Of a stretch of 33,072 bases of DNA, positions 4,867 to 31,658 are shown piece by piece. The stretch is from Catenulispora pinistramenti (GTDB taxonomy: Bacteria; Actinomycetota; Actinomycetes; Streptomycetales; Catenulisporaceae), in assembly GCF_018274385.1 (NCBI RefSeq), contig NZ_JAAFYZ010000107.1:1-33072 (forward strand), read 5' to 3'. The stretch's first letter is position 1. Every line of letters starts with the position of its first letter. The translations under genes and the position numbers were made by a program. The notes under the pieces were generated by a model. The model saw only the letters and a list, made by a program, of their open reading frames with translations, was not told the DNA's origin and searched no databases.

Positions 4867-4882
4867 GGCGCCAGTGCACACC

Positions 4883-9474: not shown

Positions 9475-9528
9475 AGTGGCCGGGTGAGCAGGACAGCGCC
9501 TGACGCGCACGCGAGCGGCCTACTGGCC
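9471..9528. terminator. Candidate bidirectional hairpin between convergent genes
   Basis: GGCCAGTGGCCG (9471-9482) pairs with CGGCCTACTGGCC (9516-9528) with one bulged base and a 33-nt loop. It lies between the convergent ATP-grasp and SARP genes, and its right arm covers the SARP stop codon. There is no U-tract, as is common in actinomycetes. Confidence 0.4.
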
Positions 9529-12528: not shown

Positions 12529-12564
12529 GATCAACATCCCCCTCGCCCGCGGTCCATGGTAGCC

Positions 12565-12596
12565 GGATCGGGGGATCGAGGGATCAAGGAATCGAA
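12565..12596. promoter_or_regulatory. Four 8-bp direct repeats upstream of the second SARP gene
   Basis: GGATCGGG, GGATCGAG, GGATCAAG and GAATCGAA follow each other without gaps. On the coding strand of the SARP gene they read as YCGATCC-like units, about 37 bp upstream of its ATG. Such short tandem units are typical of a regulator binding site. The 8-bp phase is not the 11-bp phase known for SARPs, so the binding partner is open. Confidence 0.45.
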
Positions 12597-12708
12597 CGCG
12601 GGGTGTGATCAGGACGGCGGTGCGGCAAGTCCGTGGTCTCCGGCGGCTACCCGTGCGAAGTCCGCGAGTTCTGTCACGTCTGGACCCTGACTTGCTCACG
12701 GGCGTGGC

Positions 12709-15191: not shown

Positions 15192-15503
15192 CGAAATGAA
15201 GGGTTAGGACCGCCCCGCTCCGGGGAGGAGTGCGTGCGGCGAGGCGAGTAAGGACCGCTACCGGCATCGCACTGCGACATCACGGCGAGGACAAGGCGCG
15301 CAGAACCGGCGAGGCAGGGCGACGGGAACCCAGACGTCCCGGGCTCATCCGTCGGACCGCGTAGTACTGACCAGGCGTCCGGCGCACCGGCGAAGGTCCA
15401 GATATCGGGCACAGGCGCCGGCATGCCCTGGTGTGATCCGGCGGCTGCGCAGCCTGGCCCGGACAGCCGTGTCGCGGCCGCGTTCTCACGGAGGGAATTC
15501 TTG
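15192..15503 (+). other. Long 5' leader/intergenic stretch before the main biosynthetic operon
   Basis: About 310 bp without a credible gene. A possible -10-like TAGTAC lies at 15362-15367. An in-frame ATG at 15423 would extend the next protein by 27 residues but lacks a ribosome-binding site, whereas ATG 15504 has one. No riboswitch or terminator is recognised. Confidence 0.5.
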
Positions 15504-16871
15504 ATGGATCGATCCAGCCTGACCGAGCAGTACCTCGATCGGCTGCGCCGAGCCAGTGCCACAGCATCGGAACTGATCGGCCGGCAGCCCTCGTTGCCGG
15601 CCAGCTACTATCCCGACGGTTTGCTGCCCCGGCCGCTCTTCCTGGGCCGTCAGGAGCTCGACCGGGTGGTGGCCGACCTGGAGAACTTCCGCGCCGCCCT
15701 GGTCAGCCTGCCGGACAAGGTGTTCGGCGGGGACCTGGCGGCCTTCGCCCGGGCCGCGGGCATGACCGAGCGTCAGATCGCCGCGGTCCTGCGCGGCCCG
15801 CGCGGTGCCCTCTCCCGGATCTGCCGGGTCGACCTGTATCTGAGCGATACCGGATTCAAGGTCCTGGAAGCCAACATGAGCAGCTCGCTCGGCGGCTTCG
15901 ACAACGTCGAGGTCTGCCGGATGCTGCTGGAGCACCCGGTGCTGGCCGAGTTCGCCGACCAGCACGGCTTGGGCTACACGGACACGATGAGCGAGCTGCT
16001 GCACAGCATGTTCGTGGAGACCGGATTCGATCCCGGCGGTGCCGGCCCGGCGCCGGTCGTCGCGGTGGCCGACACGCTGACCAGCTTCACGGGTCGATAC
16101 GGGCCGTTCAACCGGGAGTTCGCCGAGCACCTGCGGGGACTGGGCATCGACGCCGAGGCCTGTCACGTCGGCCAGTTCGACTACCACGACGACCGGGTCT
16201 GGCTCGACGGCCGTGCGGTCGACATCGTCCTGCGGTTCTTCATCGCCGAGGACCTGCTGGAGTCGCCCGACGCGGCCGGCCTGATCGAGCAGGTCCTGGA
16301 CGCGGCCGCGGCGGACCAGGTCAAACTGTTCTCCGCGTTGGACGTGGAGGTGTTCGCCAGTAAAGCCGCGCTGGCGATGCTCTCCGACGAGGCCAACCGC
16401 CATCTGTTCACCGAGCAGGAGCGGGCCAGTCTGGATCGGATCCTGCCCTGGACCCGGATGCTCAGGCCGGGGACCGTGAGCCTGGAGGACGGCTCGCGGG
16501 TGGACCTGATCGGTTACGCGCTCACGCATCAGCGGGAGCTCGCGCTCAAGCCGGCTGGATCCTACGGCGGCAAGGGCGTCGTCCTGGGGTGGGAGGAGGC
16601 TGTCACCCCTGATATCTGGCGCGACCGGGTGACGGCGGCTGTGGGCGGACCGTTCGTGCTCCAACGCAGGATCCAACCGGTCACCGAACTCTTCCCGGAC
16701 GAAGACGGCGAGTTGCGGCCGTGGGTCGTGGTGTGGGGGATGTTCTCGGCCGTCAACGGCTTCGCCGGAGTCCAGGTGCGTGGTGTGGCGCTCGACGCCG
16801 AGACCGGCGTCGTCTGCGTCGCCAACGGTGCCCGTGCCACGTCGGTCCTGCACGAGGCGGGCGTGTCGTGA
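15504..16871 (+). CDS. ATP-grasp-fold ligase, circularly permuted/glutathionylspermidine-synthase-like
   Basis: A 455-aa protein. ATG 15504 is preceded by GGAGGG with 8-nt spacing, the best ribosome-binding site near any cluster start. The likely ATP-binding segment LALKPAGSYGGKGVVLG (Lys349) is in the C-terminal third and is followed by FVLQRRIQPV. An acidic substrate region, FKVLEANMSSSLGG, lies earlier (about 125-138). This order, with the glycine-rich ATP loop late, is typical of circularly permuted ATP-grasp and glutathionylspermidine-synthase-like proteins rather than the classical type at 5594 or 8264. The expected role is amide ligation through an acyl phosphate. It is the first gene of the operon and is coupled by a GTGA overlap to the adenylation protein, so the two may act on the same intermediate. 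Confidence 0.72.
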   Translation: MDRSSLTEQYLDRLRRASATASELIGRQPSLPASYYPDGLLPRPLFLGRQELDRVVADLENFRAALVSLPDKVFGGDLAAFARAAGMTERQIAAVLRGPRGALSRICRVDLYLSDTGFKVLEANMSSSLGGFDNVEVCRMLLEHPVLAEFADQHGLGYTDTMSELLHSMFVETGFDPGGAGPAPVVAVADTLTSFTGRYGPFNREFAEHLRGLGIDAEACHVGQFDYHDDRVWLDGRAVDIVLRFFIAEDLLESPDAAGLIEQVLDAAAADQVKLFSALDVEVFASKAALAMLSDEANRHLFTEQERASLDRILPWTRMLRPGTVSLEDGSRVDLIGYALTHQRELALKPAGSYGGKGVVLGWEEAVTPDIWRDRVTAAVGGPFVLQRRIQPVTELFPDEDGELRPWVVVWGMFSAVNGFAGVQVRGVALDAETGVVCVANGARATSVLHEAGVS

Positions 16872-18121: not shown

Positions 18122-18339
18122 GTGAGGGTTATCGGATGGCAGCGGACGCCTTCCATACCTTGCTGAAGACCGAGATAGACGAGAGCACGGACTTCTTCGC
18201 CGCCGGCGGAAACTCTCTGCAGGCGGCACAGATGCTCCGAGGACTGCGCGGGAGCGGTGGGAGCAGGCCGAGGCTGGGGGAGTTCCTGTTGGACCCGACC
18301 CCGGCCGGGCTCGCACGCCAGCTGGTCGGGGAGGACTGA
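18118..18339 (+). CDS. Free-standing peptidyl carrier protein
   Basis: A 73-aa protein starting at ATG 18118, overlapping the adenylation gene stop by ATGA. It has the carrier signature DFFAAGGNSLQAAQML, with Ser33 as the 4'-phosphopantetheine attachment site, and four-helix carrier length. It should carry the acyl or aminoacyl group activated by the upstream protein and present it to the free condensation proteins downstream. The segment between helices II and IV (SGGSRPRLGEFLLDPTPAGL) is short but still carrier-like. Confidence 0.9.
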   Translation: MSEGYRMAADAFHTLLKTEIDESTDFFAAGGNSLQAAQMLRGLRGSGGSRPRLGEFLLDPTPAGLARQLVGED

Positions 18340-18340
18340 C

Positions 18341-19525
18341 ATGGCTCAGAACCGTGTGGCCACCCCGGAAGAAGTGCTGATGCTCCGTCAGGCGTCGGAG
18401 AACCACAACCTCAACGCGGGAATGATGGGGTGGTACGTAGCGGTCCCCCCGGACGTGGAACTCGACGGCCTCGCAGCCGCGATCTCCACGGCCATCGCCG
18501 GATCCGAGGAGTTCTCGGTGCGGTTCGAGGGGGACCCGCGGGATCTCCGCCGGGTGGTCGGGCCGAAGCCGGTGTTGGAGCTGCTCGCGCTGGACGAGCT
18601 GTCGGATGCGGAGCTCAGTGCTCTGGCCCGCCACGTCGCCGGTCAGACGCTCGACGCCTTCTCCGGCCCGTCGATCAACGCGGTGCTGATGCGGAACGGC
18701 CGGGCCGCGTGGCTGGCCGTGGGGATCAACCACCTGCTCATCGACGGCGACGGCTTCGAGCTGTTCTTGTCGCGGGTAGAGGCCGCCTACAGCGAAGCGC
18801 TGCACTCGCAGACGCCGGCGAAGGAACTCCTCTGGGCTACCGAGGCCGATCACGGCCGGTACAACGGTTCTCGCGGTCCGCTGCCCTTCGCGGAGCACTT
18901 CCGCGTGGGCGATGACGAGCTGGGCATCGCGGTATCGGACCTCGACCAGATCGCGCGGATCTGCGGCGGCTCCCGGTTCACTGTGACGCTCGCCTTCTGG
19001 GCTGACGTGGTGTGCCGGGCGACGAACCGGGGCAGCCTGCGCATGGCGGTGCCGCTGGCGACCATCGACGTCAGCGAGGACGTGCCGGACGTCGGCAACT
19101 GGTCGTGGATTCCGACGCTCGAGCTGAAGCAGGCCGGTTCGGTGCGCGAGCGCGTGCAGGCAGCGAAGGGAAGTCTCGCGGAAGCCTTCAGCCGCTACGA
19201 GTCAAGCGCTGGCGAACTGGCCCGCGAGATGGACACCACGCTCGGCGACGTCGAGTTCGCCTGGTTCATCGACATGCCCACCCTCAAGCTCGGCGGGTTG
19301 GAACTGGCGTCGGAGCAGATCAGTCCCACGTCCTTGAAAGCGCCTCTCATGTCCTGGGCGGAGCTGGACGGCGACATCCTCACCTTCCGTTGCTTCGTCC
19401 CGGACCCGGCCGGCCGCGCCGACGCGGTCAGCCGAGCGAGTCTCAGCGCCGCGGCGGCGGGTGCCTGGAAGGACTGGCAGGCTGTGCTCGGACAGGGAGC
19501 GGGCCGCGCCGGAGCCGGTGTCTGA
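18341..19525 (+). CDS. Free-standing condensation-domain protein (NHxxxDG variant)
   Basis: A 394-aa protein starting 1 nt after the PCP stop. The core reads INHLLIDGDGFELF at about residues 128-141, so the HHxxxDG motif has Asn in place of the first His while the catalytic second His and the DG are kept. A second-lobe element, VGNWSWIPTLEL, corresponds to the GxFVNTxxLR region of condensation domains. The family joins the acyl group of one carrier-bound substrate to an amine or alcohol, and stand-alone members often use small amines or a separate carrier. It is somewhat shorter than typical modules (about 430-450 aa). Together with the next gene it gives two non-identical condensation proteins in tandem. 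Confidence 0.82.
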   Translation: MAQNRVATPEEVLMLRQASENHNLNAGMMGWYVAVPPDVELDGLAAAISTAIAGSEEFSVRFEGDPRDLRRVVGPKPVLELLALDELSDAELSALARHVAGQTLDAFSGPSINAVLMRNGRAAWLAVGINHLLIDGDGFELFLSRVEAAYSEALHSQTPAKELLWATEADHGRYNGSRGPLPFAEHFRVGDDELGIAVSDLDQIARICGGSRFTVTLAFWADVVCRATNRGSLRMAVPLATIDVSEDVPDVGNWSWIPTLELKQAGSVRERVQAAKGSLAEAFSRYESSAGELAREMDTTLGDVEFAWFIDMPTLKLGGLELASEQISPTSLKAPLMSWAELDGDILTFRCFVPDPAGRADAVSRASLSAAAAGAWKDWQAVLGQGAGRAGAGV

Positions 19526-19531
19526 TCCCCG

Positions 19532-20719
19532 ATGGAATCACCGATGACTGATGCGCAGCGCATGCTTGCCATCTCGACCGTGAGAACTCCCCATCGAGCA
19601 GATCTGTCGACGCTGACGATCCTGAGGCTGTCCGAGCCGGTATCGCTCCGGCACGTCACGCAGGCCATCGCGGTGTTCGCCAACGATTCCCTGTACGCGC
19701 GGTATCACGTGCGCCGAAGCGAGCGGTCGGAACTGCTCCAGTCGTTCGCCGAGCGGACTGCCAAGACCGTTGCCGACTGGTACATCGCCGACCCGGACGT
19801 ACCGCTCTCCACCTCGCATCCGACCGTCGATGAGGTCATGAAGTGCCCGTGGGACCTCGATGCCCGGCCGCTCATCCGCTTCGTCCTGCGGGTGCGCGAC
19901 GGAGCGGTCCTGGAGATCGCGGTGGTCCTGCACCACCTGCTCGGCGACGGCGCGAGCCATCTCAGGATCATGAGAAACGTGGGTTCCTGGCTCGTCGGCG
20001 ACGGTCGCGATCTCGATGTCGATCGGTATCTGGCCGCGGTCGAGCAGACCCTGGCCGCTGAACGACTGGCCCGGTCCAAGGACCAGGACTACTGGACCGA
20101 TCGCATCGAGGCGTGGAAACCAGGCCGGGCCGACCCGCTGAAGGAAGCGTTCCCGGAGTCGGATGCGGAGACCGGCGGCGTGAGAGCCCGTGCGCTGCTC
20201 CCGCTGGCGCAGGTGTCCGGCGTACCTCGCGCTCCAAGGATCGGCGAGCTGGTCCATGACGTGTACCGCGCCCTGGCGGCGCAGCGGATCAGCGGAATCC
20301 TCGTCTGGATCGCGGCGTCCACCCGTTCCCGTGGTGCCGATACCGAACCGGACTTCGGCTACTTCGTCAGCATGCTGCCGATGCTGCCGTCGGATCCCGA
20401 GGCCGTCGCGGGCGATCCCCTGTGGGCCGATGACATACGCCGACGTTTCCTGTCGCCGGAGGACATCAGGCAGACGCTGTGGGATGCGGACGCGCAGTGG
20501 GGAGAGCTGTATCTGACGTACCGAAAGAGCGTCGCTCAGAACTCGGTGCACCCGATCGGCTCTGGTTCCGCCACGTTCGATCTCCTTCAGCCCTACCACG
20601 CGCCGCTCGGGCACGGTTCCATCCGCTACGCGCAGATCGGTGCCGAGCTCGATCTGCAGGTCGACGGCGACGTCGGAAGCAGCATCTTCCCGCAGCTGGT
20701 TGCCCGGTTCGAGCAGTGA
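19532..20719 (+). CDS. Second free-standing condensation-domain protein
   Basis: A 395-aa protein from ATG 19532 (ATG 19544, MTDAQRML, is an alternative start). It carries an intact catalytic motif, VLHHLLGDGASHL, at about residues 132-144 and an FGYFVSMLPML segment matching the FVNTLPLR region of the second lobe. It starts 6 nt after the previous stop codon. It may catalyse a second amide or ester bond, or form a complex with the preceding protein; sequence divergence between the two argues against simple duplication. Neither is fused to an adenylation or carrier domain, so substrates must arrive in trans from the PCP at 18118 or from the PCP at the end of the 24216-28043 fusion. Confidence 0.82.
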   Translation: MESPMTDAQRMLAISTVRTPHRADLSTLTILRLSEPVSLRHVTQAIAVFANDSLYARYHVRRSERSELLQSFAERTAKTVADWYIADPDVPLSTSHPTVDEVMKCPWDLDARPLIRFVLRVRDGAVLEIAVVLHHLLGDGASHLRIMRNVGSWLVGDGRDLDVDRYLAAVEQTLAAERLARSKDQDYWTDRIEAWKPGRADPLKEAFPESDAETGGVRARALLPLAQVSGVPRAPRIGELVHDVYRALAAQRISGILVWIAASTRSRGADTEPDFGYFVSMLPMLPSDPEAVAGDPLWADDIRRRFLSPEDIRQTLWDADAQWGELYLTYRKSVAQNSVHPIGSGSATFDLLQPYHAPLGHGSIRYAQIGAELDLQVDGDVGSSIFPQLVARFEQ

Positions 20720-22836: not shown

Positions 22837-24171
22837 ATGGACACCGTGACGGACACACTGATGGACGCGCTCCTGGAGGGGGCGAAGCCCGACCAGATCG
22901 CCGAGCTGCCGCTGCCGGACAGCTGTACCGCCGCCTGTCTGCACCGAGAAGACGAGGGGTTGTTCTCCGCGCACGAGGCGGAACCCGACATCACGCGGTC
23001 GATCCACATCGAGCAGGTGCCGGTACCGACCCTCGCCCCGGACGAGGTGCTGGTCGCCGTGTTCGCGAGCGCGATCAACTACAACACCGTCTGGTCGGCG
23101 ATGTTCCGGCCCGCGTCGACCTTCAGCTTTCTGGACCACCAGGCGCGGACGTCGGACTGGGCCGCCCGGCACGCCACCGACCGGCAGGTCATCGGATCGG
23201 ACGCGGCCGGAGTGATCGTCCGCAAGGGCGATTCGGTGCGGCACTGGGAACTCGGCGACAAGGTCGTGGTCTCGGCCGTCTACACCGACGAACAGCAGCC
23301 CGAGGCGCACTGGGACGGCATGCTGGCCTCGAACCAGCTGGCCTGGGGCTTCGAGACCAACTTCGGCGGCCTGGCGCACTACGCCGTGGTGAAGAGCACG
23401 GCGTTGTTGCCGAAGGCGCCGCACCTGTCGTGGGAGGAGGCGGCGGCCAACACGCTGTGCGGGATGACGGCGTACCGCATGCTCGTCAGTTCGCGGGGGG
23501 CGGCGATGAAGCAGGGCGACATCGTCCTCATCTGGGGCGCCTCCGGCGGGCTGGGCGGCTATGCGGTGCAGCTGGTCAAGAACGGCGGCGGCATCGCGGT
23601 CGGCGTCGTGGGGTCCGAGGCCAAACGGGACCTGGCCACGCGGCTCGGATGCGACGCGGTGATCAACCGGCAGGAGTTGGAGGGCGGCTTCGCCGGGGTC
23701 GCGGCCTGGCGCGAGCTCGGCCGGCAGATCCGCGGGCACGTCGGCGAGGATCCGCACATCGTCTTCGAGCACACGGGACAGGACACCTTCGGCGCCTCGG
23801 TGTACGTCGCCCGCCGTGGCGGAACGATCATCACCTGCGGTTCGAGCACCGGATACGAGCACACCTTCGACAACCGGTTCCTGTGGATGAAGATCAAGCG
23901 GATCATCGGCAGCCACGGTGCCAACTATCAGGAAGCCTCCGAGTTCAACCGGCTCGTGGCCATGGGGCACATCGTCCCGACGTTGTCCACCGTCTACCCC
24001 CTGGCCGAAGCCGCCGACGCCGCGCGGTCGGTCCAGCTCAACCAGCACACCGGGAAGGTCGGCGTCCTGTGCATGGCCCCCGAGGAGCAGCTCGGGATCG
24101 AGGACCGCGCCCTGCGCGACCAGATCGGGGAGGAACGGCTGCGACTGTTCCGCGATTTCTCAGGATCCTGA
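22837..24171 (+). CDS. ccr: Crotonyl-CoA carboxylase/reductase homologue
   Basis: A 444-aa MDR-superfamily protein; ATG 22837 has GGAGGA 6 nt upstream. CCR hallmarks are AINYNTVWSAMFRPASTF (about 79-96), GSDAAGVIVRKGD, WGFETNFGGLAHY (170-182), the NADPH loop WGASGGLGGYAVQL (233-246), VFEHTGQDTFGASV and IIGSHGANYQEA (357-367). The CO2-holding residues known from Kitasatospora setae Ccr (Asn81, Phe170, Glu171, His365) have counterparts at Asn81/83, Phe172, Glu173 and His360, so reductive carboxylation of an enoyl thioester is plausible. The residue after that His is Gly where most CCRs have Phe, which may enlarge or reshape the pocket. CCRs usually feed PKS extender units, yet no PKS gene is in the window. 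It sits just before the dehydrogenase fusion that could make its enoyl substrate. Confidence 0.9.
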   Translation: MDTVTDTLMDALLEGAKPDQIAELPLPDSCTAACLHREDEGLFSAHEAEPDITRSIHIEQVPVPTLAPDEVLVAVFASAINYNTVWSAMFRPASTFSFLDHQARTSDWAARHATDRQVIGSDAAGVIVRKGDSVRHWELGDKVVVSAVYTDEQQPEAHWDGMLASNQLAWGFETNFGGLAHYAVVKSTALLPKAPHLSWEEAAANTLCGMTAYRMLVSSRGAAMKQGDIVLIWGASGGLGGYAVQLVKNGGGIAVGVVGSEAKRDLATRLGCDAVINRQELEGGFAGVAAWRELGRQIRGHVGEDPHIVFEHTGQDTFGASVYVARRGGTIITCGSSTGYEHTFDNRFLWMKIKRIIGSHGANYQEASEFNRLVAMGHIVPTLSTVYPLAEAADAARSVQLNQHTGKVGVLCMAPEEQLGIEDRALRDQIGEERLRLFRDFSGS

Positions 24172-24215: not shown

Positions 24216-27200
24216 ATGACACCACTGTTCACCGCCGCGCAGGACGACTTGCGCAGGCGTGTGCGCGCGTTGCTCACCCGCCCGGACAGCCAGGCCGAAC
24301 TGCGCGAGGTGGCCGGTGGCCCGGGCGCCGAAGGGCCGGAGGGGCACCCCTGGCGGCTGTGGCGGCAGCTCGGTGCCCGGGGCTGGCTCGCGCCGCACTG
24401 GCCGGTCCGCTACGGCGGCCTCGGCCTGAGCTGGGTCGACGCGGGCATCGTGACCGAGGAACTGATTCTGCACGGCGTGTCCGACACCCCGATCATCAAC
24501 GGCGTCTTCAACTTCGGCGAGGCCGTGCGCGTCGCCGGAACGCCCCGTCAGAAGCAGCGGTATCTGCCGCGGATCGCCTCCGGACACATCATGGCCAGTG
24601 CGCTGCTGTCAGAGCCCGGCTCGGGTTCGGACTTGGCGTCGTTGGCGTGCGCCGCCACCCCGAGCGCCGACGGCTGGGTGCTGACCGGCACCAAGATCTG
24701 GAACGCCAAAGCCCACATCGCCGAGGTGGCGCTGTGCGCGGCGCGTACCTCGGGCGAGAGCGGCTATGCGGGCATCAGCCTGTTCACCGTTCCGCTGCGC
24801 GGCCCTGGGGTGACGATCACCGCGCTCGACACCACCAGCGCCGAGACCCTGTACAGAATCGAGTTCGACGGGCTCCGGCTCGACCCGGACCAGCTCGTCG
24901 GCACCGCCGGCGAGGCCTGGCCGCCGCTGGTCTCGATCCTCACCCTGGAACGCGCCGGACTCGGCTACCACGCTCGCGCTCGACGGTGGCTCAGTGCTCT
25001 GGCAGAACGGCTGCGACGGGCCGACGACGACGTCGCGGCGGAGCTTCGTCCCCGGGTGGCGGCCCTGGCGCGGCGCACCGCCGTCGGGTCCGAACTCGCC
25101 TGGCAGGCCGTCCGCGAACTCGACGAAGGAGCGGACGTCGCGCTCGCCTCGGCCACCGCCAAATGGTTCAACACCGAGCTCGGCGCGGACATCGTCGACC
25201 TCGCCCAGGAACACGACCTCGGCCTGGCCGGCGACGACGCGGCCAGCCGGGCGCTGGACTACGCCCGGGGCGAGGCGCTGGGCCTCACCCTCGCGGCCGG
25301 CACGTCGGAGATGATGCTCTCGATCATCCAGGGGGACCTGCGCGGCGCGCTCGCCGAGCCCGCCGCGGACCCCGATCTCCCGCGGTCGCCGCTGGAATCG
25401 GCCGTGCGCGCCGGACAGAGCGGCCAGCCGTCTCCCGACCTGGGCAGTGTCCTGATACGGGCTCTGGCTCCGCAGCGCGCGGCCCGTCAGCACCCTGTGT
25501 TAGTCGCGGCGGCTGCCGAGGAACTTCGCAGTCCTGAACATCCGGGACCGCTGGAGGTCACCGAGTCGGACGGCGGCTGGTCGGTCAGCGGCCGTCGGTG
25601 GGCGTACGGCGCGGCCGGCGTCGAGGATCACGTCGACTTGCTGGTCCCGATCCGCCAGGCGGGCCGGGACATCGTCGCCCTGGTGGACGGGACGCGAAAG
25701 GGCGTCCGGATCACCCCTGCCCGTCCGACGAACCGCGGGGAACGACTCGCGGTACTGCGCGTCGACCTGGATGACGTCACGGTCACCGAGGCTGATATCT
25801 GTGGGCCGGGCTCCTACCCCGCCGCACTGGCCGAGGCGCGGCTCGCGGCCGCGGGCTATCTGCTGGGCAGCAGCTGGGCACTGCTTCGCGCCGCCCTGGA
25901 CCGCGCAGAGGACCGACGGCAGTTCGGCCGCCCGATCTCGGCCAACCAGGCGGTGGGGCATCCGCTCGCCGCGGCGTATACGCGGTTGCGGGGTGCGATT
26001 CTGTTTGCCCGGCGGGCTGCCGCCGCGCCGGACAGCACGGCGGCGGCGCAAGCGTTCGTCATGGCAGCCGAAAGCTCGGCGGAGATCGTACGCCTGGCGA
26101 CGCGGGTCCACGGCGCCTCCGGACTGTTGCGCGAAGGGCCCGCCCAGACTGTCGCGGAGCAGGTGGTCTACCCGGCTGTCGCGCTGGGATCGCTCACCGC
26201 CGTGCGCGCCGAGGTGGCCGCCGCCTGCGCCGCGGCGGCGTTCGCATATCCGGCAGAACCGGCGGTCGCGCAAGAGGCGCCGGAGAATGAGTTGACTGAC
26301 TTCGCAGTTCCGGAGCAGTTCGTCCCGGAGCACCGGCTGGTCGAGGCACAGGTCCAGCGCACCCCGGAGGCGATCGCGCTGGTGTGCGCGGGCGAGACGA
26401 TGACGTACGCCGCGCTGAACGCCCGGGCCAACCAGGTCGCGCGCCTCCTGGTCGCGCAGGGCGTCGGGCCCGAGATTCCGGTCGGGGTGTGTCTGGAACG
26501 CGGCCCGGACCAGATCATCGCGGTGCTGGGTGTGCTCAAGGCGGGCGGCGCCTACGTCCCGCTGGATCCCGCGACTCCGCCGTCCCGGTTGCGCGACATG
26601 ATCGACGACGCCGATCCGGCCGTGCTGGTCACCCAGGAATGGATGACCGAGTGGCTTCCCGACGATCGGCTGGTGCTGTGTCTGGACACGGACGCGGAAC
26701 TGCTCACCCAGAACGACACCGACCTTCCCGGCCAGACCCATCCGGACGGCCTGATGTACATCATGTACACGTCCGGTTCGAGCGGCCGGCCCAAGGGCGT
26801 GATGGTGACGCACGGCGGTATCGGCCAGCGCATCTCCTGGGACCGGGAGAGCTTCCCGCTCACCGCGGACGACGCCGTCCTGCAGTTCACCTCGCTCGGC
26901 TTCGACCCCGCCGTCTGGGAGATCTTCGCCGCGCTCACCAGCGGCGCCCGCCTGGTCCTGATCCCGGCCGGCGCCCACGTCGATCCCCGCAAGGTCGTCG
27001 ACATCATGCGGGACGAGCGGGTCAGCGCGTTGTTCGGCGTGCCCTCGCAGCTGGAGCTGCTGATCGAGCAGCGGCCCGGCCTGCTGGACTGCCCGTCGCT
27101 GCGGTACGTGTTCAGCGGCGGCGACGCGATGACGCCGGCGTTGGTCGCGTCCTTCGCCATCGAGGACGCGCCGGAGCTGTACAACATGTACGGCCCGACC

Positions 27201-28043
27201 GAGCTCTCGATCGACGCGACCGCGTGGCGCGCCGAGCCGGTCAGCCACACCGTGCCCATCGGGCACCCGTTGCCGTATGTATCAGCGTACGTAGGCCATC
27301 CCGGGTGGGAGAAGGTCGCGGACGGCGAGGTCGGCGAGCTGTGGGCCGGCGGTGCGGGACTGGCGCGCGGCTACGTGGCGCGCGCGGCCGAGACCGCTTC
27401 GGCGTTCCGGCCGGGTCCGGTCGGCTCGCCGCCGGGCTCCCGGGTCTATCGCACGGGAGACCTGGTGCTGCGCCGGGACGACGGCATCCTGGAGTTCCAC
27501 GGACGCAACGACCGCCAGGTGAAGGTGCGCGGCTACCGGATCGAACCCGCCGAGGTCGAGGCCGCGCTGCTGGAACTGCCGCGGATCTCGCAGGCGGCGG
27601 TCGTCGCCGTGGACGACCGCCTGGTCGCGTTCGTCGTCGCGACGGAGGGCACCGACCCGGCGGGGGTGCGCCGGCGCCTGGCCGAGCGCGTCCCCAAACA
27701 CCTGGTCCCGGGCCGGATCGTGCCGGTCGAGGCGTTGAGCCGGAACCCTTCGGGCAAGATCGACTATGCGGCGTTGCGGGAGCGCGCGCGGGGGTCGGCT
27801 CCGCCGCCGACGGCCGCTGTCTGCGACAGTCCCGACGCGCTGCGCGTCCTGTATGCCAAGGTCCTCGGCCTCGCCGAGGTCGCCGACGACGAGGAGTTCT
27901 TCGCGCTGGGAGGCGATTCGCTCAGCGCGGCCCGTCTGGTCATCCAGGCCACCCGCGATCTCGGCCTGCCGCTGACGCTGGAGATGCTGCTCGGCACGCC
28001 GACGGTCGCGGACTTGGCTACTGCGCTGTACCAGGGGAAGTGA
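24216..28043 (+). CDS. Fused acyl-CoA dehydrogenase (two domains) - adenylation - PCP protein
   Basis: A 1275-aa uninterrupted protein. Residues about 1-385 form a complete acyl-CoA dehydrogenase (LSEPGSGSDLASLA, TGTKIWNAKAH, AAGTSEMMLSIIQGDLRG). Residues about 428-675 form a second one lacking the N-terminal domain (RRQFGRPISANQAVGH, RVHGASGLLREGPAQ), a pairing reminiscent of FadE34-type dehydrogenases. Residues about 705-1190 are a full adenylation domain (A3 YTSGSSGRPKG, A5 NMYGPTELS, A7 YRTGD, A8 GRNDRQVKVRGYRIEPAEVE, A10 NPSGKIDY). By eye against GrsA its specificity residues read D P W F F G M I D K, with the amino-group-binding Asp kept. The PCP has Ser1235 in LGGDSLSAA. Expected reaction: loading an amino acid and oxidising it in cis on the carrier. 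Codon 429 (25500-25502) is TTA, at the start of the second dehydrogenase part. The start is ambiguous between 24204 and 24216. Confidence 0.9.
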   Translation: MTPLFTAAQDDLRRRVRALLTRPDSQAELREVAGGPGAEGPEGHPWRLWRQLGARGWLAPHWPVRYGGLGLSWVDAGIVTEELILHGVSDTPIINGVFNFGEAVRVAGTPRQKQRYLPRIASGHIMASALLSEPGSGSDLASLACAATPSADGWVLTGTKIWNAKAHIAEVALCAARTSGESGYAGISLFTVPLRGPGVTITALDTTSAETLYRIEFDGLRLDPDQLVGTAGEAWPPLVSILTLERAGLGYHARARRWLSALAERLRRADDDVAAELRPRVAALARRTAVGSELAWQAVRELDEGADVALASATAKWFNTELGADIVDLAQEHDLGLAGDDAASRALDYARGEALGLTLAAGTSEMMLSIIQGDLRGALAEPAADPDLPRSPLESAVRAGQSGQPSPDLGSVLIRALAPQRAARQHPVLVAAAAEELRSPEHPGPLEVTESDGGWSVSGRRWAYGAAGVEDHVDLLVPIRQAGRDIVALVDGTRKGVRITPARPTNRGERLAVLRVDLDDVTVTEADICGPGSYPAALAEARLAAAGYLLGSSWALLRAALDRAEDRRQFGRPISANQAVGHPLAAAYTRLRGAILFARRAAAAPDSTAAAQAFVMAAESSAEIVRLATRVHGASGLLREGPAQTVAEQVVYPAVALGSLTAVRAEVAAACAAAAFAYPAEPAVAQEAPENELTDFAVPEQFVPEHRLVEAQVQRTPEAIALVCAGETMTYAALNARANQVARLLVAQGVGPEIPVGVCLERGPDQIIAVLGVLKAGGAYVPLDPATPPSRLRDMIDDADPAVLVTQEWMTEWLPDDRLVLCLDTDAELLTQNDTDLPGQTHPDGLMYIMYTSGSSGRPKGVMVTHGGIGQRISWDRESFPLTADDAVLQFTSLGFDPAVWEIFAALTSGARLVLIPAGAHVDPRKVVDIMRDERVSALFGVPSQLELLIEQRPGLLDCPSLRYVFSGGDAMTPALVASFAIEDAPELYNMYGPTELSIDATAWRAEPVSHTVPIGHPLPYVSAYVGHPGWEKVADGEVGELWAGGAGLARGYVARAAETASAFRPGPVGSPPGSRVYRTGDLVLRRDDGILEFHGRNDRQVKVRGYRIEPAEVEAALLELPRISQAAVVAVDDRLVAFVVATEGTDPAGVRRRLAERVPKHLVPGRIVPVEALSRNPSGKIDYAALRERARGSAPPPTAAVCDSPDALRVLYAKVLGLAEVADDEEFFALGGDSLSAARLVIQATRDLGLPLTLEMLLGTPTVADLATALYQGK

Positions 28044-28046
28044 GCG

Positions 28047-28694
28047 ATGGCAGCCGTCCGATCGCGCCTGCTCTGTTTCCCTCCTGCGGGCGGGTACGCC
28101 GCGCCGTACCGCGCCTGGCAAGGGGAGCTGCCCGCGGGCGTCGAGGTGGTCCCGATCGATCTGGAAGAGGGGCTCCCCGACGTCGGTACCCTGCTCGCCG
28201 CCTTGTTGCCCAAGGCCATCGAGGCCGCGGACCGGCCGGTCGCGCTGTTCGGGCACAGCTTCGGAGCGCTGATCGGCTACGAGCTGGCACAGGACCTGCG
28301 GGACAGAGGCCTGCCCCTGACGCGGCTGTTCGTCTCGGGCTGTCCGGCTCCGCGGCTGGCCCGCGCCCGGCGGCTGCCGGTGCCGGCCGATGCTCCCGAC
28401 CCGGAGCGGCTGCGCTTCTGGTTCGCGTTCGCCGACGGCTACCAGTACGAACCGCGAAAGCCCCTGGACTGCCCGATCTCGGCACTGGGCGGCCTGCGCG
28501 ATCCCCTGGTCCAGCCGGCGGAACTGCGGGCTTGGGAGGAGCGGACCACCAGCGGATTCCGGCTGCGGATGCTGCCGGGTTCGCACGATCTGCTGCGCGA
28601 GAGCGGCACCTACGTTCTGCGGGCGATCACAGCAGACCTCGACCACGATCCGAACCATGATCCGAACCACGATCCGAACGCGGGTGAGGCATGA
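28047..28694 (+). CDS. Type II thioesterase lacking the lid region
   Basis: A 215-aa alpha/beta hydrolase starting 3 nt after the PCP fusion. It has the type II TE start LLCFPPAGGYAAPYRAW, the nucleophile GHSFG (Ser71), Asp152 in GGLRDPLV and His180 in PGSHDLL. Typical family members are about 240-250 aa. The shortfall is mainly the helical lid, which normally separates the core strands around residues 112-132 (here only PVPADAPDPERLRFWF) and covers the active site. Its probable role is to clear misloaded carriers or release small products. The C-terminal tail DPNHDPNHDPN is a 12-bp tandem repeat (GATCCGAAC at 28647, 28659 and 28671). The stop overlaps the MbtH start by ATGA. Confidence 0.87.
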   Translation: MAAVRSRLLCFPPAGGYAAPYRAWQGELPAGVEVVPIDLEEGLPDVGTLLAALLPKAIEAADRPVALFGHSFGALIGYELAQDLRDRGLPLTRLFVSGCPAPRLARARRLPVPADAPDPERLRFWFAFADGYQYEPRKPLDCPISALGGLRDPLVQPAELRAWEERTTSGFRLRMLPGSHDLLRESGTYVLRAITADLDHDPNHDPNHDPNAGEA

Positions 28695-28930
28695 CAAAGG
28701 ACACACAGCTCTGGACCGTCGTGGTCAACCTCGAGGAACAGTATTCGATCTGGCCGGACCGCGAGGAGATCCCCGCCGGCTGGCGCGGTGCCGGCGTCGC
28801 CGGCACGGAGGCCGAATGCCTCGATCACATCGGCCGGGTCTGGACCGACATGCGGCCGCTGTCGCTCCGTCGCTGGATGGAACGGCGCGCCGCGACTTCC
28901 GCTACTGAGAAATGGGGTGACGGCATTTGA
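28691..28930 (+). CDS. MbtH-family adenylation-domain partner protein
   Basis: A 79-aa protein with the full MbtH signature: VVNLEEQYSIWPDREEIPAGW, CLDHIGRVWTDMRPLSLR and the conserved tryptophans. MbtH proteins bind the adenylation domain and are often needed for its solubility and activity, so it most likely serves the adenylation domain of the 24216-28043 fusion. It is coupled to the thioesterase by ATGA and to the next gene by a TTGA overlap. Confidence 0.96.
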   Translation: MTKDTQLWTVVVNLEEQYSIWPDREEIPAGWRGAGVAGTEAECLDHIGRVWTDMRPLSLRRWMERRAATSATEKWGDGI

Positions 28931-30441
28931 GCGAGAAGCTCTGGGGTGGGCGATTCGCATCGGACATCACCGATGACGTGCTGAAGTACACCGAGACGGT
29001 CTCGGTCGACCATCGCATGCTCGAATTCGACATGTGGCAGAACATCGCGCACGTCCTCATGCTGGGCGCGCAGGGAATCAACGACGACGCGGACACCCGC
29101 GTCCTGCTCTCCGGGCTCCTGGCCATGGAGGAGCAGCGTACGGCGGATGGTCTGACACTGGACGTCCGCCACGAGGACGTGCATCTCAACACCGAACAGA
29201 TGCTCATCTCCCGGGTCGGTGAGGTGGGCGGTCGCATGCACACGGCCCGGTCGCGCAACGACCAGGTGCAGACCGATGCCCGCATGGTCACCAGATCCTG
29301 GATCCTGGACGCGGTGCGGGAGCTGGCCGGGTTCGCCGCCGAGCTGTTCGGGTGCCCGGCCGAGGAACTCCAGACGGTGATCCCGGGCTACACCCACAGC
29401 CAGGCGGCACAGCCGATCTCGGTGGCGTTCTGGAAGGCCGCGCACGCCAACGCGTTGCTGCGGGACGCCGACCGGCTGGTCGAGGCGTGGAAACGGGTCA
29501 ACGTCAGTCCCCTGGGCACCTGTGCGCTGGCCGGAACGACCTTCGACCTCGACCGCCGTTACCCCGCCAGGCTGCTCGGCTTCGACGGCGTGCTCCCCAA
29601 CGCCCTGGACGCGACCTCGACGCGGGACTGGACGGTGGAGGTCGCGGCCGCGGCGGCTTCGGGCGCCGCCAACATCTCCCGCATGCAGGAGGAGATCGTG
29701 ACGTGGAGCTCCAACGAGTACGCGCTGGTGCAGGTCCACGACTCGTTCGCCACCGGCAGCTCGATCATGCCGCAGAAGAAGAATCCGGTGGTGGCCGAGC
29801 TCGCCCGGGGCAAGAGCGGCCGCGTGATCGGCGCGCTGGTCCAGCTGCTGGTCATGGAGAAGTCGGTCGGGCTCGGCTACAGCTGTGATCTGCAGGAGGA
29901 CAAACCCTTCTACTGGGCCGGAATCGACACCTATCTGGAGACGATCCGCCTGTGCCGCCAACAGAATCTACGGACCGGGTTCGACGGTGTCCGCGGCGAG
30001 GCTCTGTGCTGGGACAACTTCTCCACGGCCACCGAGCTGGCCAACGCCCTCGTCTCCCGGTTCAAGGTGCCCTTCCGCGCGGCACACCGCATCAGCGGGG
30101 ACGTGGTGGCCACTGTCATGGCCCAGGGCCAGACCTTGCGGAACACCGACCTCGTCTCGCGAACGCTCAAGGACGGGCACGACATCGACCTCGGCGGCGA
30201 CGAGCTGCGTCAGATTCTCGACCCGCGCAACGCGTTGAACGGCTACCGCTCAGAAGGGGCGACCGGCCCGGCGTCCATGCGAGTGCAGCAGGCGGAGGGC
30301 CTGAAGGCGACCGCTGAACGTCTCGCGTGGGCCAAGGAGCGCCGCGCCCGGTTGGACCTGGCCAAGACCGAGACCCTGAAGACAGCCGGCGAGATCGTCA
30401 GCCGGCTGGCGCCGGCATCGGAAGCGGAGGTGGCGCGATGA
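28927..30441 (+). CDS. Argininosuccinate lyase-like enzyme (ArgH paralogue)
   Basis: A 504-aa protein from TTG 28927, overlapping the MbtH stop. It follows ArgH throughout: start KLWGGRF, EDVHLNTE, HTARSRNDQVQTD, YTHSQAAQP (His157), and the superfamily signature GSSIMPQKKNP (277-287, catalytic Ser). Departures from usual ArgH include YTHSQAAQP instead of YTHLQRAQP, GYSCDLQEDK instead of YNKDLQEDK, and about 30 extra residues. It should eliminate fumarate from an N-succinyl-guanidine or amidine type substrate made by the ArgG-like partner. It may act on a pathway intermediate rather than argininosuccinate, since it lies in a coupled NRPS operon without other arginine genes in the window. Confidence 0.87.
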   Translation: MSEKLWGGRFASDITDDVLKYTETVSVDHRMLEFDMWQNIAHVLMLGAQGINDDADTRVLLSGLLAMEEQRTADGLTLDVRHEDVHLNTEQMLISRVGEVGGRMHTARSRNDQVQTDARMVTRSWILDAVRELAGFAAELFGCPAEELQTVIPGYTHSQAAQPISVAFWKAAHANALLRDADRLVEAWKRVNVSPLGTCALAGTTFDLDRRYPARLLGFDGVLPNALDATSTRDWTVEVAAAAASGAANISRMQEEIVTWSSNEYALVQVHDSFATGSSIMPQKKNPVVAELARGKSGRVIGALVQLLVMEKSVGLGYSCDLQEDKPFYWAGIDTYLETIRLCRQQNLRTGFDGVRGEALCWDNFSTATELANALVSRFKVPFRAAHRISGDVVATVMAQGQTLRNTDLVSRTLKDGHDIDLGGDELRQILDPRNALNGYRSEGATGPASMRVQQAEGLKATAERLAWAKERRARLDLAKTETLKTAGEIVSRLAPASEAEVAR

Positions 30442-31658
30442 GCATTGTGCTGGCTTACTCGGGGGGACTGGACACCTCGGTGGCGCTGCATTGGCTGCGG
30501 GAGAGGTACCAGACCGACGTCATCGCGTACTGCGCCGACGTCGGGCAGGTCGAAGACCTCGACACGGTCGCCGAACGGGCCATGGCCTCCGGGGCCAAGG
30601 ACGTCATCGTCGAGGACGTCCGGGAACGGTTCCTGACGGATTTCGCGATGCCGGCGATGGCGGCCGGCGCCGCGTACGAAGGCAAGTACCTGCTGGCGGC
30701 GCCCCTGTCCCGGCCGTTGATCGCCCAGCGGCTGGTCGAAGTGGCGCGCGAACACGGCGCCGACACCGTGGCCCACGGTGCCACCGGCAAGGGCAACGAC
30801 CAGGTCAGGTTCTACACCTCGGTGCGGGCTCTGGCACCGGAGCTCCGGGTCAGCGCGCCGGTCATCGACTGGGAGCTGACCTCCCGCCGCAGCGAGGTCG
30901 CCTACGCCGAGAAGCACGGCATCGACGTCGGCGCCAGCAAGTCGACCCCGTACAGCATCGACACCAATATCTGGGGAACCAGCATCGAGTGCGGCGATCT
31001 GGACCGCATCGACCAGGCACCGCCGGCCGACGCCTGGCAGATCACGGCGTCTGCCCAGGAGGCGCCGGACGAGCGGCTGGTTCTCGAGATCGAGTTCGAG
31101 CGGGGCGTTCCCGTCGCGATCGACGGTACTCGGATGGACTTGGTCCCCCTGGTGTCGCAGCTGTCCGGACTGGCGGCGGCGCACGGGGTCGGCCGAACCG
31201 AGATCCTCGAGAGCCGCATCGTCGGATTCAAGAGCCGGGGCATTTATGAGAGCCCCGCGGCCACGGTCCTGCACGCGGCGCGAAGCGATCTGGAAGCCCT
31301 GGTGCTCGACCGGGAGACATTGCACCACAAGAGGTCTTTCTCCGAGCGCTATGCCGAGCTGGTCTATTACGGCTACTGGTTCAGTGATCTGCGACGCGCC
31401 CTGGACGCCTATTGCTCGACTCTCGCGGCGAGGATGACCGGATCGGTCGTCGTCGAGCTCTACAAGGGTGGGATGCGCTGCGTCGGCCGCACGTCGGAGG
31501 AATTCGGCAGATACGACCTCGGCCTCGCGGACTACGAGGAGGGCGACACTTTCGACCGCACCGCGGGGGCGGGATTCGCATACTGCTGGGCGCTGCCATT
31601 GGTTCCGTCAGGACCCATGGCACCCGGCACGGCTGGTTCTCGGGGGAGGGCACGTTGA
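30438..31658 (+). CDS. Argininosuccinate synthase-like enzyme (ArgG paralogue)
   Basis: A 406-aa protein from ATG 30438 with an ATGA overlap to the lyase gene. It has the PP-loop AYSGGLDTS (6-14), HGATGKGNDQVRF (canonical GCTGKGNDQVRF), STPYSIDTNIWGTSIECG and the tetramerisation/substrate region VGFKSRGIYESPAATVLHAA. The family couples a ureido group (citrulline) to aspartate with ATP. In this operon it may act with the lyase to turn a ureido into a guanidino group, or simply raise arginine supply. The last about 20 residues (GPMAPGTAGSRGRAR) extend past the usual C terminus and overlap the ribosome-binding site of the formyltransferase. The stop overlaps that gene's ATG by 1 nt (TGATG). Confidence 0.9.
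   Translation: MSIVLAYSGGLDTSVALHWLRERYQTDVIAYCADVGQVEDLDTVAERAMASGAKDVIVEDVRERFLTDFAMPAMAAGAAYEGKYLLAAPLSRPLIAQRLVEVAREHGADTVAHGATGKGNDQVRFYTSVRALAPELRVSAPVIDWELTSRRSEVAYAEKHGIDVGASKSTPYSIDTNIWGTSIECGDLDRIDQAPPADAWQITASAQEAPDERLVLEIEFERGVPVAIDGTRMDLVPLVSQLSGLAAAHGVGRTEILESRIVGFKSRGIYESPAATVLHAARSDLEALVLDRETLHHKRSFSERYAELVYYGYWFSDLRRALDAYCSTLAARMTGSVVVELYKGGMRCVGRTSEEFGRYDLGLADYEEGDTFDRTAGAGFAYCWALPLVPSGPMAPGTAGSRGRAR

What the first reader, a model, noticed from the sequence alone, without database searches (positions are those of the whole stretch)
24216..28043. Acyl-CoA dehydrogenase pair fused to an adenylation-PCP unit
One uninterrupted frame joins a complete acyl-CoA dehydrogenase, a second one without its N-terminal domain, an adenylation domain and a PCP. 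In pyrrole biosynthesis separate proteins (PltF, PltL, PltE types) load proline on a carrier and oxidise it with a flavin dehydrogenase. Here loading and oxidation would be built into one chain, and the residues lining the adenylation pocket do not look like a proline code to me. This suggests in-cis dehydrogenation of a carrier-bound amino acid to a dehydroamino acyl thioester.
Basis: partly seen in the sequence, partly recalled or inferred. Interest (0 to 1): 0.82.

Follow-up and report, generated by a model that had tools for sequence, protein, structure and literature searches.

The report
Amino-acid-loading enzyme with built-in dehydrogenase
A soil bacterium seems to make one protein that picks up an amino acid and also contains the flavin enzyme to remove two hydrogens from it, a job that most of the relatives examined divide between separate proteins.

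Summary
One frame (24216-28043, 1275 aa) encodes ACAD1-ACAD2-A-PCP, followed by a thioesterase and MbtH. An assembly artefact is unlikely: a collinear fusion occurs in Streptomyces graminilatus (L049; ACAD1 62%, ACAD2 44%, A 65%, PCP 60% identity). Six distinct Streptomyces loci carry a half-fused form (ACAD1 | ACAD2-A-PCP | TEII).

The two ACADs are most likely one enzyme. ACAD1 resembles one chain of Fic32-33 (8hk0) and carries the likely base Glu245 but lacks the RxxFG motif for FAD. ACAD2 carries RxxFG and resembles the partner chains of Fic32-33 and ChsE4-ChsE5. I read the tandem as a fused heterodimer with one composite FAD site.

The A-domain code (DPWFFGMIDK) is not proline (2/10) and matches a tyrocidine glutamine code at 7/10; a glutamine- or citrulline-type side chain fits best, and arginine genes lie beside it.

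Best reading: the chain loads such an amino acid on its own PCP and removes the alpha and beta hydrogens in cis. Precedents: CaeB1 (in trans) and the unrelated Ox domain of indigoidine synthetase (in cis; mechanism recalled). Substrate, activity and product are untested. New variant of a known kind.

The parts
24216..25370 (+). ACAD1, residues 1-385: alpha-type acyl-CoA dehydrogenase half; candidate base Glu245; Ala361 where medium-chain enzymes carry their Glu
   Evidence: Pfam; 8hk0_A 231 bits; VIA Z 35.2; residues
25371..26285 (+). ACAD2, residues 386-690: beta-type half without N-terminal domain; R567-x-x-F570-G571 motif
26301..27815 (+). Adenylation domain, residues about 696-1200; code D897 P898 W901 F940 F966 G968 M991 I999 D1000 K1181
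   Evidence: Pfam; code
27816..28043 (+). PCP with phosphopantetheine Ser1235 (LGGDSL), and stop codon
28047..28694 (+). Free-standing type II thioesterase; 56% identical to the one after the L049 fusion
   Evidence: Pfam
28691..28930 (+). MbtH-like protein
   Evidence: Pfam
28927..30441 (+). Argininosuccinate lyase, an extra copy (one of three places over the argH cut-off in the genome)
30438..31658 (+). Argininosuccinate synthase, one of two copies in the genome
31655..32239 (+). Formyl-transferase-like protein
22837..24171 (+). Crotonyl-CoA carboxylase/reductase-type enzyme, ends 44 bases before the fusion; one of two copies over the cut-off in the genome

Best explanation
The protein is a self-contained aminoacyl-carrier dehydrogenase. 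(1) The A domain, probably helped by the MbtH protein, activates an alpha-amino acid with a polar amide or ureido side chain (glutamine type; glutamine or citrulline most likely) and loads it on its own PCP. (2) The ACAD1-ACAD2 tandem is a heterodimeric acyl-CoA-dehydrogenase-like enzyme fused into one chain. ACAD1 supplies the isoalloxazine pocket and the base (Glu245) that takes the alpha proton; ACAD2 supplies RxxFG for the FAD pyrophosphate; FAD takes the beta hydride. The result is an alpha,beta-dehydroaminoacyl thioester made in cis. (3) The free-standing thioesterase or another enzyme of the cluster takes the product off. Shown by sequence and model: domain order, conservation in a second genus, half-fused and separate relatives, key residues. 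Inferred: a single FAD site, the substrate class, the in-cis reaction, the release step.
For: Collinear fusion in L049, also followed by TEII. In 41 loci examined: full fusion 1, half-fused 9 (6 distinct), ACAD1 and ACAD2 on separate ORFs 27, ACAD2 not detected 4. Fused and half-fused forms group in both trees: ACAD1 96/93, A domain 92/86 (the second is below the tool's star mark). ACAD1: 8hk0_A 231 bits against 107 for the next chain; Z 35.2 over 370 residues at 2.0 A. ACAD2: lowest Foldseek E-value for 4x28_C (ChsE4-ChsE5), tied with the homomeric-looking 5af7_A; 8hk0_C/D and 6wy8_A/C rank 7, 14, 22, 21. Glu245 in 28 of 28 ACAD1 rows; no Glu at the Ala361 column in the 26 rows with a letter there (rows are the window plus 27 of the 71 ACAD1 stretches). 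RxxFG invariant in 13 of 13 ACAD2 rows, chosen by hand; the only RxxFG in window residues 1-695 lies in ACAD2. Code 7/10 with tyrocidine Gln DAWQFGLIDK, 2/10 with Pro DVQYIAHVTK. CaeB1, an ACAD-like flavoprotein, alpha,beta-dehydrogenates cysteinyl-S-PCP in vitro (PMC8149447 passages).
Against: No activity, FAD content or substrate has been measured. Code positions were assigned by motif, not on a solved template, and position 278 (Phe here) differs from the Gln codes. On its own the fold does not prove dehydrogenation. By Z the ACAD2 model is tied with many ordinary ACADs. ACAD1 rows L114 and L126 do carry an RHQFG, so its absence from the alpha chain is not universal in the wider family. A free alpha,beta-dehydroamino acid would tautomerise and hydrolyse, so the final product is unclear. 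The neighbours of L049 (lysine- and preQ0-type genes) differ from the window's.
Confidence: 0.6

Rival explanations
1. The ACAD tandem works on a substrate other than the amino acid on its own PCP (an acyl-CoA, or a chain on another carrier); the fusion only keeps genes together.
For: Heteromeric relatives such as ChsE4-ChsE5 are acyl-CoA enzymes (recalled); a crotonyl-CoA carboxylase/reductase gene ends 44 bases upstream, which could pair with an enoyl-CoA-forming enzyme.
Against: ACAD2 is joined to A-PCP in the fused and half-fused forms, which group in both trees, and TEII follows in both. ACAD1 is far closer to the Fic32-33 chain (231 bits) than to the ChsE4-ChsE5 chain 4x28_A (106 bits).
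Confidence: 0.15
2. The flavoprotein catalyses a redox-neutral or further oxidative step from the alpha carbanion (a KtzA-like cyclisation on a substituted amino acid, a second oxidation, or epoxidation) rather than a simple dehydrogenation.
For: ACAD-like enzymes in natural-product pathways do this: EpxF/EpnF (described in PMC11212132, passages); KtzA (recalled). The other full fusion (L049) sits near a BesD-family protein.
Against: The L049 BesD-family protein has an HxD motif (H137-W-D139), which suggests a hydroxylase and not a halogenase. No PF23169 protein was found in the window's genome, though that search rang in no control genome and so proves little. The PhyH proteins of the four half-fused loci looked at (L037-L040) also carry HxD.
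Confidence: 0.12
3. The A domain activates arginine, ornithine or lysine rather than a Gln-type amino acid; the oxidation is as proposed.
For: Extra copies of argininosuccinate synthase and lyase lie in this cluster; arginine deiminase lies in the two half-fused loci tested for it (L037, L040); lysine-pathway-like genes lie beside L049; Asp at code position 331 could bind a cation.
Against: The code shares 7 of 10 letters with a Gln code and 5 of 10 with a recalled Arg code (DVADVGAIDK). The arginine genes fit a ureido substrate (citrulline) equally well.
Confidence: 0.3

Closest known systems
Fic32-33 complex, Streptomyces ficellus (PDB 8hk0)
   Same: Closest solved relative of ACAD1 (231 bits; Z 35.2); its other chains are among the closest for ACAD2. 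Two different ACAD chains, presumably of the ficellomycin pathway (recalled from the name).
   Different: Separate proteins, not fused to an A-PCP. Its reaction was not read here.
Heteromeric steroid ACADs ChsE4-ChsE5 (4x28) and Tcur3481-Tcur3483 (6wy8/6wy9)
   Same: Same alpha/beta division as inferred here; chains of the two types match the corresponding halves.
   Different: Separate chains that work on steroid CoA esters (recalled); no NRPS domains.
CaeB1/ColB1 (caerulomycin, collismycin; 7xp7)
   Same: ACAD-like flavoprotein that alpha,beta-dehydrogenates an amino acid bound to a PCP; shown in vitro for CaeB1 (PMC8149447 passages).
   Different: Acts in trans, recruited by a truncated C domain (Ct); likely base Glu372; cysteine substrate.
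Indigoidine synthetase (BpsA/IndC type)
   Same: Loading, oxidation, carrier and thioesterase as one unit; code DAWQFGLINK, assigned to L-glutamine (PMC3992020 passages), resembles this one.
   Different: The oxidation domain is embedded in the A domain (same passages) and is of another fold using FMN (recalled); no such domain is found here; the thioesterase here is free-standing.
PltE/RedW/PigA/AnaB prolyl-carrier oxidases
   Same: ACAD fold; oxidise a carrier-bound amino acid; PigA Z 30.8, AnaB Z 30.5.
   Different: Stand-alone enzymes, proline substrate; the code here is not proline.
BolQ (bolagladins)
   Same: ACAD-like enzyme assigned by gene deletion to the desaturation of a carrier-bound aminoacyl unit (PMC7756342 passages).
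   Different: Separate protein; N-acyl-beta-alanyl substrate.

Membership tests
Heteromeric alpha/beta acyl-CoA dehydrogenase (Fic32-33, ChsE4-ChsE5 kind) | Alpha half with a Glu base on the LER helix and no Glu at the medium-chain position | tested here: met
   Glu245 in 28 of 28 rows; Ala361 column Ala/Ser/Gly in the 26 rows with a letter (window plus 27 of the 71 ACAD1 stretches)
Heteromeric alpha/beta acyl-CoA dehydrogenase (Fic32-33, ChsE4-ChsE5 kind) | RxxFG FAD motif only on the beta half | tested here: met
   R567/F570/G571 invariant in 13 of 13 hand-chosen beta rows; none in ACAD1 of the window. Of the 26 separate ACAD1 rows 22 have none; L051 and L052 have one in the beta domain (by eye); L114 and L126 carry RHQFG
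Heteromeric alpha/beta acyl-CoA dehydrogenase (Fic32-33, ChsE4-ChsE5 kind) | Two chains assembling into one FAD site per alpha/beta pair | not testable with these tools
   Here both halves are on one chain; FAD stoichiometry needs protein
Pyrrole-forming prolyl-PCP oxidase (PltE/PigA type) | Proline-activating partner A domain | tested here: not met
   Code DPWFFGMIDK matches Pro DVQYIAHVTK at 2 of 10
NRPS oxidase (Ox) domain of indigoidine-synthetase type | Ox domain embedded in the A domain | tested here: not met
   Six Pfam families in P0001, none an oxidase of that kind; only about 60 residues between AMP-binding (to 1053) and AMP-binding_C (from 1113)
Glutamine-activating A domain | Specificity code of Gln type | tested here: inconclusive
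   7 of 10 letters with DAWQFGLIDK, 6 of 10 with DAWQTGLIDK and with DAWQFGLINK; positions set by motif
Trans-acting PCP-recruited flavoprotein (CaeB1/ColB1) | Separate protein recruited by a Ct domain | tested here: not met
   Fused in cis; no condensation-type domain in P0001

The most novel reading that the evidence does not exclude
A carrier-bound relay: the fused ACAD makes an alpha,beta-unsaturated citrulline- or glutamine-type thioester on its own PCP, the crotonyl-CoA-carboxylase/reductase homologue encoded 44 bases upstream reductively carboxylates that PCP-bound unit at the alpha carbon, and the argininosuccinate synthase/lyase pair of the cluster turns its ureido group into a guanidine. 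This would be an unknown route to alpha-carboxylated or dehydro arginine analogues.
Probability: 0.07. Interest if true: 0.82.

Novelty: new variant of a known kind. Interest (0 to 1): 0.56.

Why it matters
Dehydroamino acids are widespread in natural products, and a review says that the formation of many of them in bacterial nonribosomal peptides has remained unanswered (PMC10880069, passages). If the reading holds, this is a one-chain module in which an ACAD-type dehydrogenase needs no separate recruiting domain, and separate, half-fused and fully fused forms all exist for comparison. It would be a ready test bed for carrier-bound dehydrogenation and a possible part for engineered peptide synthetases.

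Tried and rejected
Two active ACADs in tandem: judged unlikely because RxxFG occurs only in ACAD2, which lacks an N-terminal domain and reads Ala-Arg where ACAD1 has Glu245-Arg246 (by eye; the ACAD2 rows of L055 and L056 have Ala there too). ACAD1 and ACAD2 show no significant pairwise similarity (E 7.1), which by itself says little.

Frameshift or assembly artefact: judged unlikely from the collinear L049 fusion and the unbroken third-position GC.

Proline code: rejected. Arginine from the neighbours: my first idea; weakened, not excluded, once the codes were compared with published Gln codes.

Cyclopropane formation after lysine chlorination (KtzA logic), suggested by the BesD-family gene in L049: weakened by its HxD motif.

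Literature: 'acyl-CoA dehydrogenase domain' with 'nonribosomal peptide synthetase' gave 0 papers; 'radical halogenase', 'lysine', 'BesD', 'HalD' gave 0. No paper on Fic32-33 stood in the rows listed for ficellomycin or azinomycin terms (20 of 46, 1 of 1, 5 of 5). Two broader searches listed 1 and 13 papers, none of which names an ACAD-ACAD-A-PCP protein in title or abstract as shown. So I found no report of such a protein in these searches of open-access papers; subscription journals are not covered. The passages seen on dehydroarginine did not describe an ACAD origin.

Further full fusions: none in the 30 loci looked at from genome searches over 391 genomes of the order (19 matches at E<=1e-60), 394 of the class (6), 392 Streptomyces (10 at E<=1e-65) and 14 of the family (5 at E<=1e-45); these samples overlap, the first, second and fourth counts include the window's own genome, and in the three large runs only two candidates per genome were scored. 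Streptomyces graminilatus itself did not appear in them. Among the best 80 of 277 relatives found by a pattern scan of genome contigs there is one, L049. The scan needed one of two exact short motifs, so others may be missed.

A fold not listed in the VIA-align tables is not excluded by them.
Full report
OBSERVATION. The frame at 24216-28043 is open for 1275 residues and coding by third-position GC throughout. Pfam gives ACAD_N, ACAD_M, ACAD C-terminal (two stretches), AMP-binding, AMP-binding_C and PP-binding, in that order. The AlphaFold2 model of residues 1-695 (34-row alignment A3; pLDDT 83.7, pTM 0.84) shows one whole ACAD and a second one that has lost nearly all of its N-terminal domain. 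The contig is exactly the 33,072-base window of an 11.46-Mb genome in 671 contigs, so the 3' end of the cluster is not visible. The genus looks like Catenulispora by the size of a one-contig relative (10,467,782 bases); that is recall, not a test.

PROBABLY NOT AN ARTEFACT. A scan of genome contigs (one genome for each of 84,980 species) with an alignment of the window's tandem and four relatives (A1) matched 372 stretches, of which 277 encode relatives; the best 80 were kept. One is a full fusion: Streptomyces graminilatus NRRL B-59124, L049:7992-11879, 1296 codons, ACAD1 62%, ACAD2 44%, A 65% and PCP 60% identical, followed directly by a thioesterase 56% identical to the window's. Five more of the 80 have ACAD2-A-PCP on one ORF, with ACAD1 as a separate gene. 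No other ORF of the 80 loci joins an A domain to either ACAD at BLAST E<=1e-5.

A SERIES OF ARCHITECTURES. In two trees built from a hand-picked set of loci the fused and half-fused forms group together: ACAD1 96/93 (20 rows), A domain 92/86 (35 rows; short branch, below the tool's star mark). Two of 20 and three of 35 rows are flagged as long. One joining of ACAD2 to A-PCP followed by capture of ACAD1 is the simplest history; this is inference. TEII directly follows in the 6 distinct half-fused loci. In L040, whose neighbours were tested, there follow a copper amine oxidase, a PhyH protein over the ectoine-hydroxylase (ThpD) cut-off and an aminobutyraldehyde-dehydrogenase-family protein, with an arginine deiminase and a methyltransferase on the other side; the deiminase was also confirmed in L037. 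Similar starts of neighbouring proteins in the other loci were seen by eye only.

ONE ENZYME, NOT TWO. ACAD1's best solved match by sequence is 8hk0_A (231 bits; next 107). By fold it is again 8hk0, 'Fic32-33 complex from Streptomyces ficellus', Z 35.2, 370 residues, 2.0 A, 37% identity. ACAD2 modelled alone (13-row alignment; pLDDT 84.2) has its lowest Foldseek E-value with 4x28_C of ChsE4-ChsE5, tied with 5af7_A; 8hk0_C/D and 6wy8_A/C are close behind. By Z it is tied with ordinary ACADs, so this part rests on sequence identity (23-26% with those chains against 14-20% for most others listed) and on motifs. Glu245 sits in the 'LER' helix, where isovaleryl- and long-chain enzymes keep their base (recalled), and is Glu in 28 of 28 ACAD1 rows. 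The medium-chain Glu position (Ala361) is Ala, Ser or Gly in the 26 rows with a letter there (the rows are the window plus 27 of the 71 ACAD1 stretches). The RxxFG motif, which binds the FAD pyrophosphate in ACADs (recalled), is invariant in 13 of 13 hand-chosen ACAD2 rows (R567, F570, G571) and absent from ACAD1 of the window. Against this, ACAD1 rows L114 and L126 carry an RHQFG, and L051 and L052 a RAQFG that lies in the beta domain. The tandem is best read as a fused alpha/beta heterodimer with one composite FAD site.

SUBSTRATE. Code residues by motif: window DPWFFGMIDK, L049 DPWTFGMIDK, half-fused DIWAFGFIDK in 4 of 5 loci aligned (L053 DIWAFGFVDK). The A domains upstream of separate ACAD pairs in L033, L055 and L056 read DVFDFGGVAK. 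Published codes: Gln in tyrocidine DAWQFGLIDK, Gln in McnA DAWQTGLIDK, Pro DVQYIAHVTK (PMC2866473, one passage); Gln assigned for an indigoidine synthetase DAWQFGLINK (PMC3992020, passages). The window matches 7, 6, 2 and 6 of 10. A pocket for a Gln-type side chain is therefore the best guess. Citrulline would also explain the arginine deiminase of L037 and L040 and the extra argininosuccinate synthase and lyase here; higher-scoring copies of both lie elsewhere in the genome, for the synthase only slightly (451 against 445 bits). L049 instead lies among lysine-pathway-like genes, preQ0-type genes and a BesD-family protein, which argues against one shared end product.

MECHANISM. Inferred: A loads PCP; the PCP arm reaches the ACAD site on the same or a partner chain; Glu245 takes the alpha proton and FAD the beta hydride; TEII or another enzyme removes the product. 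Precedent: CaeB1 converts cysteinyl-S-PCP to the dehydro form in vitro, needs FAD, acts in trans and needs a Ct domain for recruitment (PMC8149447, abstract and passages). BolQ deletion gives dihydro products (PMC7756342, passages). Indigoidine synthetase carries an oxidation domain embedded in its Gln-activating A domain, with thiolation and thioesterase domains (PMC3992020, passages); that this domain dehydrogenates carrier-bound Gln is recalled (the mechanism paper cited is not held). The window thus combines the in-cis layout of the latter with the fold of the former.

NEIGHBOURHOOD. A crotonyl-CoA carboxylase/reductase homologue (504 bits against a cut-off of 378.55) ends 44 bases upstream; it is one of two over the cut-off in the genome. 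It keeps INYNTVW, WGFETNFGG and GSHGANY stretches, which by recall hold the CO2-binding residues. Whether it acts on the PCP-bound product is the boldest open question. Two condensation-domain-like proteins, a stand-alone A domain and two ATP-grasp-like proteins (one of them with weak matches only) could carry the product further.

VERDICT. Real, conserved in a second genus, rare in the genomes sampled. A new variant of a known kind: carrier-bound amino acid dehydrogenation by an ACAD-type flavoenzyme, here built into the loading protein.

Noticed in passing
window 15423-16871 (+): 482-aa protein before the stand-alone A domain without any Pfam or NCBIfam match.
   Followed up: partly
window 18257-19525 and 19532-20719 (+): Two consecutive stand-alone condensation-domain-like proteins, both below the Pfam cut-off (13.8 and 27.0 against 30.6 bits); the first reads NHLLIDG and the second HHLLGDG at the usual active-site motif.
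   Followed up: no
window 3493-4870 (-): BBE-type FAD oxidase nearest to the BagK/FevA1 and BagG/FevA2 models, at about half of their cut-offs.
   Followed up: no
window 542-3511 (+) and 9520-12699 (-): Two large SARP-type regulators (BTAD + NB-ARC) in one contig; the first has a long Gly/Ser/Ala/Pro repeat between its domains.
   Followed up: no
window 28635-28685 (+): The thioesterase ends in a short tandem repeat, HDPN three times.
   Followed up: no
L049:204-6635: QueC- and FolE-like genes, and by eye QueD and QueE, with DapC-, DapD- and LysA-like genes beside the S. graminilatus fusion: an unusual mix of 7-deazaguanine and lysine pathways.
   Followed up: partly
L037-L040, L050, L052: Recurrent Streptomyces cluster around the half-fused form: ACAD1, ACAD2-A-PCP, TEII, then (families tested in L040, the deiminase also in L037; by eye elsewhere) copper amine oxidase, ThpD-like dioxygenase, aminobutyraldehyde-dehydrogenase-family protein, arginine deiminase and methyltransferase; product unknown to me.
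   Followed up: partly
window 26928-27335 (+): The pocket region's best solved match is 8xjz_C, 'Peptide synthetase' (71 bits), whose substrate I do not know.
   Followed up: no
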